Below the pieces are notes generated by a model that saw only the letters and a list, made by a program, of their open reading frames with translations, was not told the origin of the DNA and searched no databases. Positions 1,733 to 6,038 of a stretch of 6,038 nt of DNA are shown piece by piece (position 1 is the stretch's first letter; every line of letters begins with the position of its first letter). Origin of the DNA: a bacterium. GTDB lineage: Bacteria; UBA9089; CG2-30-40-21; SBAY01. A program made the translations under genes and the position numbers. The stretch is from NCBI GenBank assembly GCA_040757115.1, contig JBFLYA010000197.1, forward strand, positions 844 to 6,881, written 5' to 3'.

Positions 1733-1930
1733 ATGAAAGTAGCCGATTTAAGCAAAGAAGAGTTCAAGGTGTTAATGGGTGAGGTAATTGAAGAAAAATT
1801 TAAGGGATTCTTTGATCCTGACTATGAGCTTGAATTACAAAACGAATTTGTTCAAAGATTGGAAAACTCAATCGCATCTAAAGAAAGAGTTCCCTTTGAA
1901 GATGTGAAGAAAAAACTCGGGTTGGTTTGA
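1733..1930 (+). CDS. RelB-like antitoxin of a toxin-antitoxin pair
   Basis: This small acidic protein of 65 residues is likely the antitoxin that would bind and neutralise a RelE-type ribonuclease toxin encoded directly after it. The sequence begins MKVADLSKEEFKVLMGEVI, then has a DPD motif (about residues 28-30), a Glu-rich helix, and ends with a VKKKLGL tail. This layout is typical of the small 60-80 residue antitoxins paired with RelE/ParE-like toxins in many bacteria. No helix-turn-helix is apparent, so autoregulatory DNA binding is not predicted from sequence. The start is supported by GGAAGGA (1721-1727), six bases before the ATG. The stop codon TGA overlaps the next gene's ATG by one base (A1930), implying translational coupling. 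The family call rests on motif style and context, not on a search. Confidence 0.7.
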   Translation: MKVADLSKEEFKVLMGEVIEEKFKGFFDPDYELELQNEFVQRLENSIASKERVPFEDVKKKLGLV

Positions 1931-2195
1931 TGTACAAAGTTGAATTTACACCTCAAGCCGAAGAAGATTTATCTTGCATTGATAAAACTATTGCAAAACG
2001 GATTGTTGATAAAGATAGAATGGTTTTGTCAAAATATAGGACATATTATCAGTGAACCACTAACAGGGAAATTTATAAGGTAAGTATAAACTGAGGGTTG
2101 GTGATTGGCGAATAATATATTCAATTGAACATCGGAGCAAGATTTATAAAATATAGAAAGATATACCGGTGCGAAATATTCCACAAGGAGTTTAA
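1930..2195 (+). pseudogene. RelE/ParE-like toxin, broken by frameshifts
   Basis: The frame opens with MYKVEFTPQAEEDLSCIDKT, the characteristic beginning of RelE/ParE-superfamily mRNA-cleaving or gyrase-targeting toxins. It runs into a stop at 2053-2055 after only 41 residues, whereas the family is usually 80-95. Homology continues in other frames. From about 2015, one base on, it reads IEW then IISEPLTGKF. From 2091, one further base on, it reads LRVGDWRIIYSIEHRSK, the conserved core strand region. A stop at 2154-2156 then interrupts the tail, which could run to TAA at 2193-2195. Two +1 insertions (near 2011-2014 and 2075-2090) plus a stop explain this. The toxin is therefore probably dead while its antitoxin is intact. 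Sequencing error could account for one lesion but hardly all three. Confidence 0.75.
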
Positions 2196-2427
2196 TACAA
2201 ATATCAAAATGTCCAAATCAAAAGGACAAAGCAAAATGCAAAAATATACCCAAATAAATTAAGTTTGCAAATATTTTGCTCTAAAAAGGGATCAAGGATT
2301 CGAGGGGTCAAGGAGAAGGCTCTTGGATAAAAATAGGAAGTAAGAAATGGGAAATAGGAAGTAAATAAAACAAAATTCCTACTTTCTACTCTCTACTTAA
2401 AAAGTGGGGGTGAAGGAAAAAATTTGC
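2196..2427. other. Intergenic repeat patchwork before the caspase genes
   Basis: No gene is seen here. The stretch is a series of low-complexity periodic words: an A-rich segment with repeated CAAAAT/CAAAAG words (2203-2250), three 8-base units TCAAGGAT, TCGAGGGG and TCAAGGAG (2292-2315), and the heptamer tracts listed separately (2335-2398). I could not find a convincing -35/-10 promoter pair for the downstream gene in this segment. Confidence 0.5.
2335..2398. repeat. Second heptanucleotide tract, purine block then pyrimidine block
   Basis: The purine block reads AGGAAGT, AAGAAAT, GGGAAAT, AGGAAGT (2335-2362) in register 7, with the 13-base word AAATAGGAAGTAA repeated 21 bases apart (2331 and 2352). 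The pyrimidine block reads TTCCTAC, TTTCTAC, TCTCTAC (2376-2396), three units of YYYCTAC. The two blocks are partly complementary (AGGAAGTA against TACTTTCT/TTCCTACTT), so a weak hairpin is possible. Confidence 0.65.
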
Positions 2428-2497: not shown

Positions 2498-2557
2498 GTT
2501 TTTAATCAAAGGTAGAGTTCCTATCAAAACTCAAATAACAAAAAGGAGGAGTTTATC

Positions 2558-3394
2558 ATGGCAAAAGGAATAGCACTAACAATTGGACTTAACTCAGTTG
2601 ACCCAAAGCATTATGGAGGGTGGTCAGGCGATTTGAATGCTTGCGAAGCAGATGCAGAGGATATGGCGTCTATCGCTAAATCCAAAAAATTTAAGGTTAA
2701 AACCTTATTGACAAAATCTGCTACCCGAACAAAGGTGATGGAAGAAATCTCTAACGCCGCTAAAACACTAACTAAAGGTGATATTTTTATGGTGAGTTAT
2801 TCAGGACACGGAGGACAGTTGCCTGACCTCAACAATGATGAACCTGATGCTCAAGATGAAACCTGGTGTCTGTATGATGGGGAATTAGTGGATGACCAAT
2901 TATACTCTTTATGGGGGAAATTTAAAGAGGGCGTGCGTATTCTTGTCTTTTCTGACAGTTGTCATAGTGGCACAGTAACTAAAGCCGCATATTACCAGGG
3001 GACAATTAATAGCCGAAGCTCGAATATTGGTTCTTCGCAGGTAAAATATCGTTTTATGCCACCAGATGTCGCACTACGCACCTACCGAAATAACAAAGAT
3101 TTCTATGACGAAATACTAAAAGACCGAATACTAAAAGAGGCTAAAGCAAAGGTTAAAGCGGCGGTTTTACTAATTTCAGGTTGTCACGATAATCAATTAT
3201 CTTCGGATGGTGATTTTAATGGCTTGTTCACTGGACAGTTGCTCAGGGTCTGGAAAAATGGGGCATTTAAAGGTAACTATAAAAAATTCTATAAGTCTAT
3301 ACTTCTGCGTATGCCGCCAGACCAAACACCTAATTATTTCTGGGCAGGTAAGCTCAACCCTAAATTTGAAGCACAAACACCATTTACTATCTAA
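2558..3394 (+). CDS. Caspase-like cysteine protease (metacaspase, peptidase C14)
   Basis: This 278-residue single-domain protease is predicted to cleave proteins through a Cys-His dyad. It opens with the first caspase strand KGIALTIGLN and has the catalytic His84 in SYSGHGGQ. An acidic stretch with the DExxCLYD motif (residues 100-107) and VDD (111-113) follows. The catalytic Cys135 lies in SDSCHSGT. After it come YRFMPPDVALR (164-174) and a second-subunit block LLISGCHDNQ through DFNGLFT (204-225). In metacaspases the Asp of DSC contributes to a basic (Arg/Lys) P1 preference, so cleavage after Arg or Lys is likely but unproven. No signal peptide or membrane segment is visible, so it is probably cytoplasmic. 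The start is firm: AGGAGG (2544-2549) sits eight bases before the ATG. It lies 103 bases upstream of a second caspase gene on the same strand, suggesting co-transcription. Both catalytic residues are present and the length looks complete. Confidence 0.9.
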   Translation: MAKGIALTIGLNSVDPKHYGGWSGDLNACEADAEDMASIAKSKKFKVKTLLTKSATRTKVMEEISNAAKTLTKGDIFMVSYSGHGGQLPDLNNDEPDAQDETWCLYDGELVDDQLYSLWGKFKEGVRILVFSDSCHSGTVTKAAYYQGTINSRSSNIGSSQVKYRFMPPDVALRTYRNNKDFYDEILKDRILKEAKAKVKAAVLLISGCHDNQLSSDGDFNGLFTGQLLRVWKNGAFKGNYKKFYKSILLRMPPDQTPNYFWAGKLNPKFEAQTPFTI

Positions 3395-3401
3395 AAGTAT
3401 A

Positions 3402-3471
3402 GGACGCAGATAAACGCAGATTTTCAGGATTTTTAAATATACATCCTGATAATCTGCGAAAATCTGCGTCC
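3402..3471. repeat. 70-bp ACGCAGAT palindrome between the caspase genes
   Basis: Two 29-base arms (3402-3430 and 3443-3471) match in 25 of 29 positions around a 12-base AT loop. Each arm carries two ACGCAGAT-type words (a perfect GGACGCAGAT outer end) and a CAGGAT inner end. In RNA it would make a long stem between the stop of the first caspase gene and the ribosome site of the second (AGGAGG, 3486-3491). No U-tract follows, so it is not a typical terminator. It could reduce read-through or stabilise one part of the message. It looks like a dispersed palindromic repeat inserted within the operon. Confidence 0.8.
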
Positions 3472-3497
3472 CATAACCTATTTTCAGGAGGATAAAA

Positions 3498-5816
3498 ATG
3501 AAAAAGAAGGCGTTATTAGTGGGAATAAATAGATATAAGTATGTGTCTTGTCTTAGAGGATGTGTGAATGATGTCAAAAATATGAACCATATATTACAGA
3601 CATATTTCGAATTTAAACAAGAGAATATCCGTTCTCTAATTGATGAAAGTGTTACTCGAGACCATCTTATGTCAAGATTAAGCTGGTTAATAGATGATGC
3701 TGAACCTGGAGATGTTCTGGTATTTCATTTCTCAGGACACGGCTCCCAGATAATTGATAGAGGCGTCCTTGATGAATTGAATGACCATAGGGACGAGATA
3801 CTCTGTCTGTATGATATGGACTTCCGTAATGCAAACAGTTTTTTAACTGATGATGATTTTAGTAAAACCTTTAACCGATTACCCAAAGGTGTGAATCTTT
3901 CGGTTATTATTGATTCCTGTCATTCAGGAACGGCAACTCGAGAAATAGAATCTTTACAAAGGGAGGTAAAAGCTACTCCTACTATCCAATATCGGTATCT
4001 TTTACCACCAGATGATATTGCTTTACGGGAAAGAAGTATTCCAATATCTGTAAGGCGATTTACAAAATCCGTGGGGAGAAATTGTGCCGATGTGGGTATT
4101 AATCATATACTCTTAGCCGCCTGCGAAGATAGAGAGTCCGCCGCAGATGCCTATATAGCCGATAGTTTCAATGGCGCCTTTTCTTATAATTTATGCAAAT
4201 GGATAAGAGATACTAATGGAAATTTAACCTATCAAGACCTGATAATTCGTGTTCAGAGAAGTCTCTTACATAATGGGTTTGCCCAGAAACCACAATTAGA
4301 AGGACCACGGGAACTCCGGGGAAGAAAGATGTTCTCAGCAACAGAAGAGTCACCGGTTAGGGTTTCAGATTCTTTGTATAAAAACCGATATTGTATTACT
4401 CAAAAAAACTTATCTCTCCCCTTAGCTCAAGGAATGATACTTGGGACATCATCAGAGTTTAACGGCACTGTCAGGGTAAATAATCTATCTTCATCCAAAA
4501 CACGGGATTTAAGCAGAGAATCTAATCCGGAAGTAATTGAAGGATTAGAAAATGGAGGGTTTATAGTATCAAATGTTTTAGAATTTCAGCCTGCAAAACA
4601 GCGCTCCTTAGACAAAGGAGAACAATTAGAACCACTTCAACTCCTGGTAGAATGTGGCCCGAATGAGGAAACCGTATTTTTAACCGCAGAAAATGGAATC
4701 TGGAAGTGGTATTTTGGTGAGTCAGAAAGAACCTATCGCACAGGGTTAAGAGCCCCTGGAGTAGAATCACACATAAAATCTTTTAAAATACCCTTTATAA
4801 CACAGGAAATTACTACCAGAGGTATCAGGAGTAAATTTATTTATTGTTTGAAGTTTATTAAAGATTGGGTTGATGAACAAGTGGAGAAAGCAATCAACGG
4901 GATTATCTTTAAAATAGAAGAAAAGAATGTTAAAGAGGGATTCAGGGTAATTACTGACGATTTTAATAACATCCAACCTTTTAATGATTTGCCATCTTTA
5001 AAAGGCAAAAAGATATTACTCTTTATTCACGGGACATTTAGCTCAACCGCAGGTGGATTTGCTGCTATTACAGGAGACACAATTAAAAGATGGAAAAATA
5101 AATATGATATGATATTAGGATTTGACCATAAAACATTATCAAAAACACCGGAAGAAAATAGCAGGGAGATGTTAGAAATTCTACCTGATGGTTTTCAGGT
5201 TGATATAATTTCTCATTCAAGAGGAGGATTGGTATTAAGGAGTTTAACAGAGTTATGCCAGAGTGAATTAGTTAAAAAAGCGATAGTAGTTAATAAAGCG
5301 ATAATGGTTGGAACACCAAATGCCGGCACAACTTTAGCCGACCCAACACGCTGGAAAACAATGGCTGATTTGCTCACAACACTATTTAGTTTAACTGGCG
5401 GCGCCTGGTTAAAGATTGCATTACCTTTCCTTGCAGGAGTAATCAGATATCTTTCTTCTCAATTAGACAAGCCGGAAGTTATCCCCGGATTATGGGCACA
5501 AAATCCTAACTCACCGTTTCTAACCAGACTAAATCAAAGTCAAAGTCCTACAAACACTACCTATGCGGCTATTACATCAGATTTCGAGCCAAGAAATTTC
5601 TTTCAGAAAGCAGTCCTTGAAAATATCCTGGATATGGTTGCTGATGCATTCTTTGGGTACGCTAATGATATGGTGGTAAATACAAAAAATATGACCTCGA
5701 TAGAAATAGCCGATGAATATCACCAACATTTTACTCAAGAAAGAAATGTTCATCATTGCAATTACTTTACTTTTAAAGAGACAATTGATGCCATAGAAAG
5801 ATTTATGGAAACATAG
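3498..5816 (+). CDS. Caspase domain fused to an alpha/beta-hydrolase (lipase-like) domain
   Basis: This 772-residue two-enzyme fusion starts with a caspase-like protease domain (about residues 1-280): first strand KKALLVGINRY, catalytic His81 in SGHGSQ, DExLCLYD (99-106), Cys141 in DSCHSGT, YRYLLPPDDIALR (165-177), and AACEDRE..FNGAFS (207-229). A linker of about 220 residues follows, with mixed strands and Arg/Lys-rich spots but no family I recognise. The C-terminal domain (about 500-772) is an alpha/beta hydrolase: oxyanion loop FIHGTF (509-514), nucleophile Ser574 in ISHSRGG (a GxSxG elbow with Ser in the first place), VGTPNAGT (604-611), probable acid Asp724 in NDMVV, and probable base His753 in HHCNYF. 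A hydrophobic stretch (about 634-651) may be a lid or membrane-contact helix. There is no signal peptide. AGGAGG (3486-3491), six bases before the ATG, fixes the start. The hydrolase would act on an ester, perhaps lipid, but the substrate is unknown. Confidence 0.88.
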   Translation: MKKKALLVGINRYKYVSCLRGCVNDVKNMNHILQTYFEFKQENIRSLIDESVTRDHLMSRLSWLIDDAEPGDVLVFHFSGHGSQIIDRGVLDELNDHRDEILCLYDMDFRNANSFLTDDDFSKTFNRLPKGVNLSVIIDSCHSGTATREIESLQREVKATPTIQYRYLLPPDDIALRERSIPISVRRFTKSVGRNCADVGINHILLAACEDRESAADAYIADSFNGAFSYNLCKWIRDTNGNLTYQDLIIRVQRSLLHNGFAQKPQLEGPRELRGRKMFSATEESPVRVSDSLYKNRYCITQKNLSLPLAQGMILGTSSEFNGTVRVNNLSSSKTRDLSRESNPEVIEGLENGGFIVSNVLEFQPAKQRSLDKGEQLEPLQLLVECGPNEETVFLTAENGIWKWYFGESERTYRTGLRAPGVESHIKSFKIPFITQEITTRGIRSKFIYCLKFIKDWVDEQVEKAINGIIFKIEEKNVKEGFRVITDDFNNIQPFNDLPSLKGKKILLFIHGTFSSTAGGFAAITGDTIKRWKNKYDMILGFDHKTLSKTPEENSREMLEILPDGFQVDIISHSRGGLVLRSLTELCQSELVKKAIVVNKAIMVGTPNAGTTLADPTRWKTMADLLTTLFSLTGGAWLKIALPFLAGVIRYLSSQLDKPEVIPGLWAQNPNSPFLTRLNQSQSPTNTTYAAITSDFEPRNFFQKAVLENILDMVADAFFGYANDMVVNTKNMTSIEIADEYHQHFTQERNVHHCNYFTFKETIDAIERFMET

Positions 5817-5818
5817 AG

Positions 5819-5874
5819 ACACCACACCTATTTATTTAGAATGTTAAAATTTTTGGTAAGCGTTCAGGTGGTGT
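5819..5874. other. Inverted repeat just after the fusion gene
   Basis: ACACCACACCT (5819-5829) pairs with AGGTGGTGT (5866-5874) apart from a two-base bulge, over a 36-base AT-rich loop that contains AGCGTTCA. It begins two bases after the stop codon. It lacks a T-tail on the plus strand, so termination is possible but not shown. Confidence 0.4.
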
Positions 5875-5884
5875 AACAAAAGGA

Positions 5885-6028
5885 GATATGGAGATTAAGG
5901 GGATATTATTTAAAAAATTGAAATTAGTAGAAACTGATAGAAATTTATGGAAATTTGTTGTTTTCCACAATCAATTTCTACCTATTTCTATAAATTTCAA
6001 TCTATTTCTATTATCTTATCTCCATATC
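5885..6028. repeat. 144-bp palindromic MITE-like element at the window end
   Basis: Perfect 11-base ends GATATGGAGAT (5885-5895) and ATCTCCATATC (6018-6028) enclose two A/T-rich arms. The left arm is made of GAAATT/TAGAAA words and the right arm of their complements TTTCTA/AATTTC. The centre closes with GAAATTTGTTG (5950-5960) against CAATCAATTTC (5968-5978), 9 of 11 matching, over a 7-base loop. The whole could fold into one long hairpin and may end transcription of the caspase unit. No coding frame lies inside. The element may continue past the window edge. Confidence 0.7.
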
Positions 6029-6038
6029 ACTCTTATCT

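What the first reader, a model, noticed from the sequence alone, without database searches (positions are those of the whole stretch)
2558..5816. Tandem caspase genes as one possible protease-effector module
Two adjacent same-strand genes each encode a caspase domain with an intact His/Cys dyad (His84/Cys135 and His81/Cys141). The second also carries a hydrolase. A stand-alone protease next to a protease-effector fusion resembles initiator-executioner logic. Caspase-like proteases are known in bacterial conflict systems, and metacaspases usually cut after Arg/Lys. That this pair forms a defence or programmed-death system is inference. No nucleic-acid sensor, STAND ATPase or cyclase gene is visible in the window.
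Basis: partly seen in the sequence, partly recalled or inferred. Interest (0 to 1): 0.7.

Follow-up and report, generated by a model that had tools for sequence, protein, structure and literature searches.

The report
Caspase gene beside caspase–lipase fusion gene
Two neighbouring bacterial genes encode a small caspase and a caspase fused to a lipase-like enzyme; related caspases in many distant microbes also sit beside a second protease and often a lipase, which suggests a protease-controlled membrane-damaging unit that nobody has yet tested.

Summary
Gene 1 (2558-3394) is a 278-aa caspase, orthologous to Geobacter GSU0716 (PDB 3bij, 66% identity). Gene 2 (3498-5816) is a 772-aa fusion of a metacaspase-like domain and a DUF7379 lipase-like α/β-hydrolase whose triad S574/D724/H753 is invariant in 17 of 17 homologues. 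Both caspase dyads are intact.

This exact pair was found in only two genomes of one genus (386 sampled). However, 97% identity between them starts 18 bp before gene 1 and covers both genes, so they appear to travel together. In 30 of 65 loci elsewhere, GSU0716-type caspases have a second protease and/or lipase-like hydrolase as the next gene: hydrolase–caspase fusions in Bradyrhizobium and Undibacterium, DUF7379–CHAT in Solimonas and B. algeriense, papain–hydrolase in Rhodobacteraceae. DUF7379 is fused to or beside a clan-CD protease in nearly every strong locus examined.

Best model: a two-protease, one-lipase effector unit with proteolytic control of a membrane-attacking lipase. Composition and recurrence are shown; activation, toxicity and immunity are inferred. 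No known defence gene lies nearby. Caspase/α-β-hydrolase pairing is already published for VMAP conflict systems, so this is a new variant of a known kind.

The parts
2540..2557 (+). Leader with Shine-Dalgarno-like AAAAAGGAGG just before gene 1; left end of the segment shared with G001
   Evidence: Read directly; blastn between window and G001 contig: shared segment 2540-6038 at 97.2%
2558..3394 (+). Gene 1: stand-alone GSU0716-type caspase (C14), 278 aa, dyad H84/C135, no extra domain
   Evidence: (3bij, E 7.5e-126)
3398..3474 (.). 77-bp palindromic dispersed repeat between the two genes (8 copies at 95-100% in the genome, many partial ones)
   Evidence: also present in G001
3498..5816 (+). 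Gene 2: metacaspase-like caspase fused to a DUF7379 lipase-like hydrolase, 772 aa
3501..4301 (+). Gene 2 caspase domain, residues 2-268, dyad H81/C141
4353..4997 (+). Gene 2 middle region, residues 286-500: no Pfam family; conserved in the Planctomycetota full-length homologue (E 1.3e-30); structure not resolved
5016..5813 (+). Gene 2 DUF7379 hydrolase and tail, residues 507-772; nucleophile S574, acid D724, H753; oxyanion-side H511-G512

Best explanation
The two genes form one effector unit of two cysteine proteases and one lipase-like enzyme. Gene 1 is a free GSU0716-type caspase. Gene 2 carries its own caspase domain at the N-terminus and a DUF7379 serine hydrolase at the C-terminus. Most likely the hydrolase is kept inactive or misplaced in the full-length fusion, and is released or unmasked by proteolysis, by the fused caspase, by gene 1, or by one activating the other. 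The freed hydrolase would then attack lipids or other esters and damage the cell's own membrane. Shown: the two-gene composition, intact catalytic residues in all three enzymes, purifying selection, movement of the two genes as one cassette in two genomes, and recurrence of 'GSU0716-type caspase plus second protease plus lipase-like hydrolase' in unrelated lineages with both protease and hydrolase families exchanged. Inferred: that proteolysis controls the hydrolase, that the target is lipid, that the outcome is growth arrest or death, and that the trigger is an invader or stress.
For: Catalytic residues intact. dN/dS about 0.24-0.36 between the two genomes by NG86, with the gene-2 caspase domain the most constrained part (2 changes in 280 residues against 24 in 492). 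Shared segment begins at 2540, 18 bp before gene 1, with unrelated DNA upstream. Of genes next to 65 GSU0716-type caspases 31/129 encode a protease and/or lipase-like hydrolase, against 3/665 farther genes (Fisher 5e-23). With queries not taken from those neighbours the figure is 7/129 against 3/665 (p 2e-4). Protease-hydrolase fusions next to a GSU0716-type caspase: DUF7379-CHAT in Solimonas (25 bp gap) and B. algeriense; hydrolase-caspase in Bradyrhizobium and Undibacterium; papain-hydrolase in Rhodobacteraceae, Sinorhizobium and Rokubacteria. Direct fusion to GDSL/SGNH lipase in Rhodobacteraceae and rhizobia; patatin next door in a Desulfobacterales genome. DUF7379 is in 8/47 genomes with a GSU0716-type caspase against 6/386 sampled genomes. 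DUF7379 is fused to or next to caspase, CHAT or C11 in nearly all strong loci. Lipase relationship. Published precedent: VMAP caspases always neighbour an α/β-hydrolase gene (PMC7159879).
Against: The exact pair is confined to one genus in the sample. About half of GSU0716-type loci show no such neighbour (35 of 65). Some partners are neither protease nor lipase (chitosanase GH46, GH18, guanylate cyclase), so the GSU0716-type caspase may be a general regulator. The first statistic is partly circular, because some query proteins came from the neighbours. In the Planctomycetota genome gene 2's homologue stands without gene 1 beside it. No sensor gene is in the 13-kb G001 contig. The full-length fold model is poor (pLDDT 44.6), so no autoinhibitory contact can be read.
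Confidence: 0.45

Rival explanations
1. The two genes are independent stress or housekeeping proteases that happen to lie side by side; gene 2's hydrolase is a metabolic esterase or thioesterase and the proteases handle damaged proteins.
For: In G001 the neighbours are housekeeping genes (FliN-like, methyltransferase, GatC, dCMP deaminase, CBS). Full-length pairing is confined to one genus. A repeat insertion separates the genes.
Against: Both genes are conserved as one block with different upstream DNA; the same combination of parts recurs in unrelated lineages.
Confidence: 0.25
2. The unit is a reduced relative of a published ternary conflict system (VMAP, EACC1 or EACC2 type): caspases and α/β-hydrolase are the effectors and the sensor/ATPase part is encoded elsewhere in the genome.
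For: VMAP systems pair caspase domains with an α/β-hydrolase gene, and a vWA-caspase accompanies a VMAP-caspase plus hydrolase, that is two caspases and one hydrolase (PMC7159879). Relatives of the parts carry TPR-S, pYEATS, TCAD7, TIR and SIR2-AAA.
Against: No MoxR, vWA or VMAP gene on the 13-kb G001 contig; VMAP-C not found in the genome (but no positive control rang); EACC1-type caspase model scores far under its cut-off (43.5 and 31.1 against 140).
Confidence: 0.15
3. The unit acts outwards: proteases and lipase are a secreted or injected degradative set used against competitors or for nutrition, as suggested by chitosanase, GH18, L,D-transpeptidase and M15 partners of some relatives.
For: Cell-wall and polysaccharide-degrading partners (L087, L126, L197; M15 fused in Rhodobacteraceae). 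The Geobacter sulfurreducens metacaspase operon contains an amidase (PMC3501461).
Against: No signal peptide in either protein by eye; no hydrophobic stretch long or strong enough for a membrane helix in gene 2; no secretion genes on the G001 contig.
Confidence: 0.15

Closest known systems
GSU0716 family (Geobacter sulfurreducens caspase, PDB 3bij; uncharacterised)
   Same: Gene 1 aligns end to end, 66% identity, same dyad and length
   Different: In the window it stands before a caspase-lipase fusion; partners elsewhere vary
VMAP ternary conflict systems (Kaur et al. 2020, PMC7159879)
   Same: Two caspase domains with one α/β-hydrolase as co-operating parts
   Different: No MoxR, vWA or VMAP component nearby; caspase and hydrolase are fused; caspases of other subfamilies
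EACC1/EACC2 caspase systems (PMC7159879, PMC8195603)
   Same: Two-gene layout with a caspase fused to a variable C-terminal domain; proteolytic activation proposed
   Different: The first gene is a second caspase, not a membrane EACC protein; the model score is far below cut-off
DUF7379-CHAT proteins (for example Ruegeria SPO_RS20450, Solimonas, Paracoccus)
   Same: Same hydrolase domain fused to a clan-CD protease
   Different: CHAT lies C-terminal of the hydrolase instead of caspase N-terminal
Bacterial gasdermin and CARD-NLR systems with proteases (PMC13236601 and its account of earlier work)
   Same: Protease-controlled death effector; phospholipases can replace gasdermin in some
   Different: No gasdermin, CARD or NLR-like ATPase here; the effector is fused to a protease
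Multi-metacaspase operons (Asplund-Samuelsson et al. 2012, PMC3501461)
   Same: More than one metacaspase per operon was already reported in 20 operons
   Different: Those were not linked to a lipase-like partner or to one caspase subfamily

Membership tests
Prokaryotic caspase homologues (C14, orthocaspase/metacaspase) | p20 domain with His-Cys dyad | tested here: met
   H84/C135 and H81/C141; Pfam C14 over cut-off
Prokaryotic caspase homologues (C14, orthocaspase/metacaspase) | Cleavage after Arg/Lys | not testable with these tools
   Acidic residues before the catalytic Cys are present (D133, D139), but specificity needs an assay
GSU0716 family | End-to-end similarity with intact family motifs | tested here: met
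   66% over 278 residues; 67 relatives in many phyla share the motifs
DUF7379 (PF24096) lipase-like hydrolases | Full-length domain match and Ser-Asp-His triad | tested here: met
   170 bits against cut-off 33; S574, D724, H753 invariant 17/17
DUF7379 (PF24096) lipase-like hydrolases | Lipolytic activity | not testable with these tools
   Sequence and fold neighbours are lipases; no assay
VMAP ternary conflict system | MoxR, vWA and VMAP genes in the neighbourhood | tested here: not met
   None on the 13.2-kb G001 contig; only about 1 kb read beyond gene 1 and 8.8 kb beyond gene 2
VMAP ternary conflict system | VMAP-C anywhere in the genome | tested here: inconclusive
   No match, but no control genome rang
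VMAP ternary conflict system | Caspase domain paired with an α/β-hydrolase | tested here: met
   Fused in gene 2; published rule
EACC1 two-gene system | EACC1-associated caspase type and 5' EACC1 gene | tested here: not met
   43.5 and 31.1 bits against cut-off 140; the gene before is not EACC1
Bacterial gasdermin / CARD-NLR | Gasdermin or NLR-like ATPase gene adjacent | tested here: not met
   None on the window contig or G001 contig
PADLOC known defence systems | Complete system call | tested here: inconclusive
   Only a generic 'caspase' model is hit by both proteins; full system rules were not run

The most novel reading that the evidence does not exclude
An undescribed class of self-contained prokaryotic effector modules built around GSU0716-type caspases: a constant caspase gene plus a gene that fuses a second protease (caspase, CHAT or papain type) to a lipase-like serine hydrolase (DUF7379, other α/β-hydrolase), working like pyroptosis with a lipase in the place of gasdermin.
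Probability: 0.3. Interest if true: 0.75.

Novelty: new variant of a known kind. Interest (0 to 1): 0.5.

Why it matters
Prokaryotic caspases are widespread, yet the substrates and partners of most are unknown. If GSU0716-type caspases are constantly matched with a second protease and a lipase, with both partner families freely exchanged, this points to what such caspases control and gives a two-gene, sensor-free unit in which caspase-controlled lipase activity can be tested directly. It would also give a function to DUF7379, a domain no paper in the held library mentions.

Tried and rejected
Recent tandem duplication: rejected, the caspases are about 30% identical and have different nearest relatives. 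EACC1 system: rejected by score and gene content. Phage origin: no full-length match in phages; viral contigs carry stand-alone caspases of both kinds but no pair. Single-protein scan of genome contigs with gene 2 found nothing. Full-length structure of gene 2 was too poor to use; the C-terminal model is good only in the hydrolase core. The N-terminal hydrolase of the Bradyrhizobium/Undibacterium partner could not be confirmed by profile comparison (probability 10%) or PDB search; it rests on HG, AHSLG, ND and H motifs and weak Pfam hits. Two further phylum-level DUF7379 surveys gave few new cases.

Full report
1. What is there. The window is the right-hand 6038 bases of a 6881-base contig. 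Two + strand genes lie at 2558-3394 and 3498-5816. Gene 1 is a 278-aa caspase that matches Geobacter GSU0716 (PDB 3bij) end to end with E 7.5e-126, 66% identity. Gene 2 is a 772-aa protein: caspase domain 2-268, whose nearest solved relatives are plant, trypanosome and yeast-type metacaspases, and a DUF7379 α/β-hydrolase at 507-679.

2. The hydrolase is intact and lipase-like. In 17 DUF7379 proteins from many lineages S574, D724 and H753 are invariant, as are H511-G512 before the nucleophile. A profile of 16 of them finds a solved putative lipase (7x2p, E 2.8e-8), Geobacillus lipases (about 2e-6) and PlaB phospholipase (2.4e-4). A model of residues 286-772 has a confident hydrolase core (pLDDT mostly 86-94 from about residue 477 to 605 of gene 2) and its best Foldseek matches are lipases. 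That it acts on lipids is inference.

3. The two genes behave as a unit in the genus. Genome G001 of the same genus has both genes at 97% identity. The shared stretch starts at window position 2540, 18 bp before gene 1; further upstream the DNA is unrelated. Both genes are under purifying selection (NG86 dN/dS about 0.24 and 0.36), and the gene-2 caspase domain changes least. A palindromic 77-bp element, with 8 copies at 95-100% in the genome, sits between the genes; it is probably a mobile repeat and not a designed regulator.

4. Is the pair conserved? Not as such. Among 386 sampled genomes only G000 and G001 have it. The nearest relatives of the gene-2 caspase are stand-alone caspases in the same phylum (47-49%). 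One full-length gene-2 homologue (863 aa) lies in a Planctomycetota genome that also has a gene-1 orthologue, but on another contig. A second, divergent caspase-DUF7379 fusion (1197 aa) lies in G349 in a same-strand row with two CHAT-like proteins, an Hsp70 and a propeller protein (the last two named by reading the sequence).

5. The parts recur together. DUF7379 is strongly tied to clan-CD proteases: fused to CHAT in Solimonas, B. algeriense, Ruegeria, two Paracoccus, Ensifer, G326, G428, G419, G414 and G757; next to a CHAT gene in G403, G715 and G747; near a C11-like gene in G418; only G851 has none among the strong matches. In G326 a gene that reads as a C11 clostripain stands directly before the DUF7379-CHAT gene.

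6. A scan of GTDB genomes with gene 1's family gave 67 loci from bacteria and archaea. Of 129 genes next to the caspase in 65 usable loci, 31 encode a second protease and/or lipase-like hydrolase, against 3 of 665 farther genes. This test is partly circular, because some queries were taken from those neighbours; with independent queries it is 7/129 against 3/665, p 2e-4. Partners include a papain-like C1 gene (Deltaproteobacteria, Nitrospirae, Nitrosocosmicus), papain-hydrolase fusions (Rokubacteria, Gemmatimonadetes, all 14 Rhodobacteraceae-type loci, Sinorhizobium plasmids), hydrolase-caspase fusions (Bradyrhizobium, Undibacterium), DUF7379-CHAT (Solimonas, B. algeriense) and a patatin-C11-CHAT row (Desulfobacterales). 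In Rhodobacteraceae and rhizobia the caspase itself carries an N-terminal GDSL/SGNH hydrolase, in Rhodobacteraceae also an M15 peptidase. The 14 Rhodobacteraceae-type loci are related and should count as about one lineage; without them 17 adjacent genes remain. DUF7379 is found in 8 of 47 genomes with a gene-1 relative against 6 of 386 sampled genomes; genome size differs between the sets, so this is only indicative.

7. How it most likely works. Two proteases and one hydrolase in one unit, with the hydrolase fused to a protease, fit proteolytic control of a damaging hydrolase. The order of events is not known: the fused caspase may cut its own linker, gene 1 may cut gene 2, or gene 2 may activate gene 1. 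No step of this has been shown. Neither protein has an evident signal peptide, and gene 2 has no stretch strong enough for a membrane helix, so action inside the cell is more likely.

8. Known or new. Caspase domains next to α/β-hydrolases are a published rule for VMAP conflict systems, where two caspases and one hydrolase can occur together (PMC7159879). Operons with several metacaspases were reported in 2012 (PMC3501461). No MoxR, vWA, VMAP, EACC1, gasdermin or NLR gene was found near this pair, although only about 1 kb beyond gene 1 and 8.8 kb beyond gene 2 could be read. I file it as a new variant of a known kind: it works like these systems but is a member of none that I tested. The recurring pattern around GSU0716-type caspases was not found described in the papers searched, which cover open-access text only.

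Noticed in passing
window 1735-2200: A 65-aa ORF (1735-1932) followed by a broken frame starting MYKVEFTPQAEEDL looks like an antitoxin gene with a decayed RelE/ParE-type toxin gene.
   Followed up: no
L005 3-710 (contig, just left of the window): End of a transposase-like ORF (235 aa, open at the contig edge).
   Followed up: no
window 3398-3474: 77-bp palindromic repeat with 8 copies at 95-100% identity and many partial copies across the genome.
   Followed up: partly
window 5849-6038; L007 8149-8520: Repeat at the contig end that also occurs a second time on the G001 contig and resembles a stretch near another caspase gene (C85) of this genome.
   Followed up: no
L006 3076-5316 and L007 8733-9989: Two more caspase genes in this genome: a WD40-repeat caspase and a caspase with a C-terminal zinc-ribbon-like motif.
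   Followed up: no
L163 7817-19001: Same-strand row of two CHAT-like proteins, a coiled-coil protein, a propeller protein, an Hsp70 and a caspase-DUF7379 fusion in G349.
   Followed up: partly
L130-L142, L145: Rhodobacteraceae-type loci: papain-hydrolase gene directly before a gene for GDSL lipase, GSU0716-type caspase and M15 peptidase in one protein.
   Followed up: partly
L098 766-6400: Caspase, patatin phospholipase, C11 clostripain and CHAT genes in a row in a Desulfobacterales genome.
   Followed up: partly
L155, L156, L157: Other tandem caspase genes in unrelated genomes (G251, G366, G146).
   Followed up: no
L202-L227; phage record LR745208.1: Stand-alone caspases of both kinds on contigs classed as viral, including a 485-kb phage genome.
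   Followed up: no
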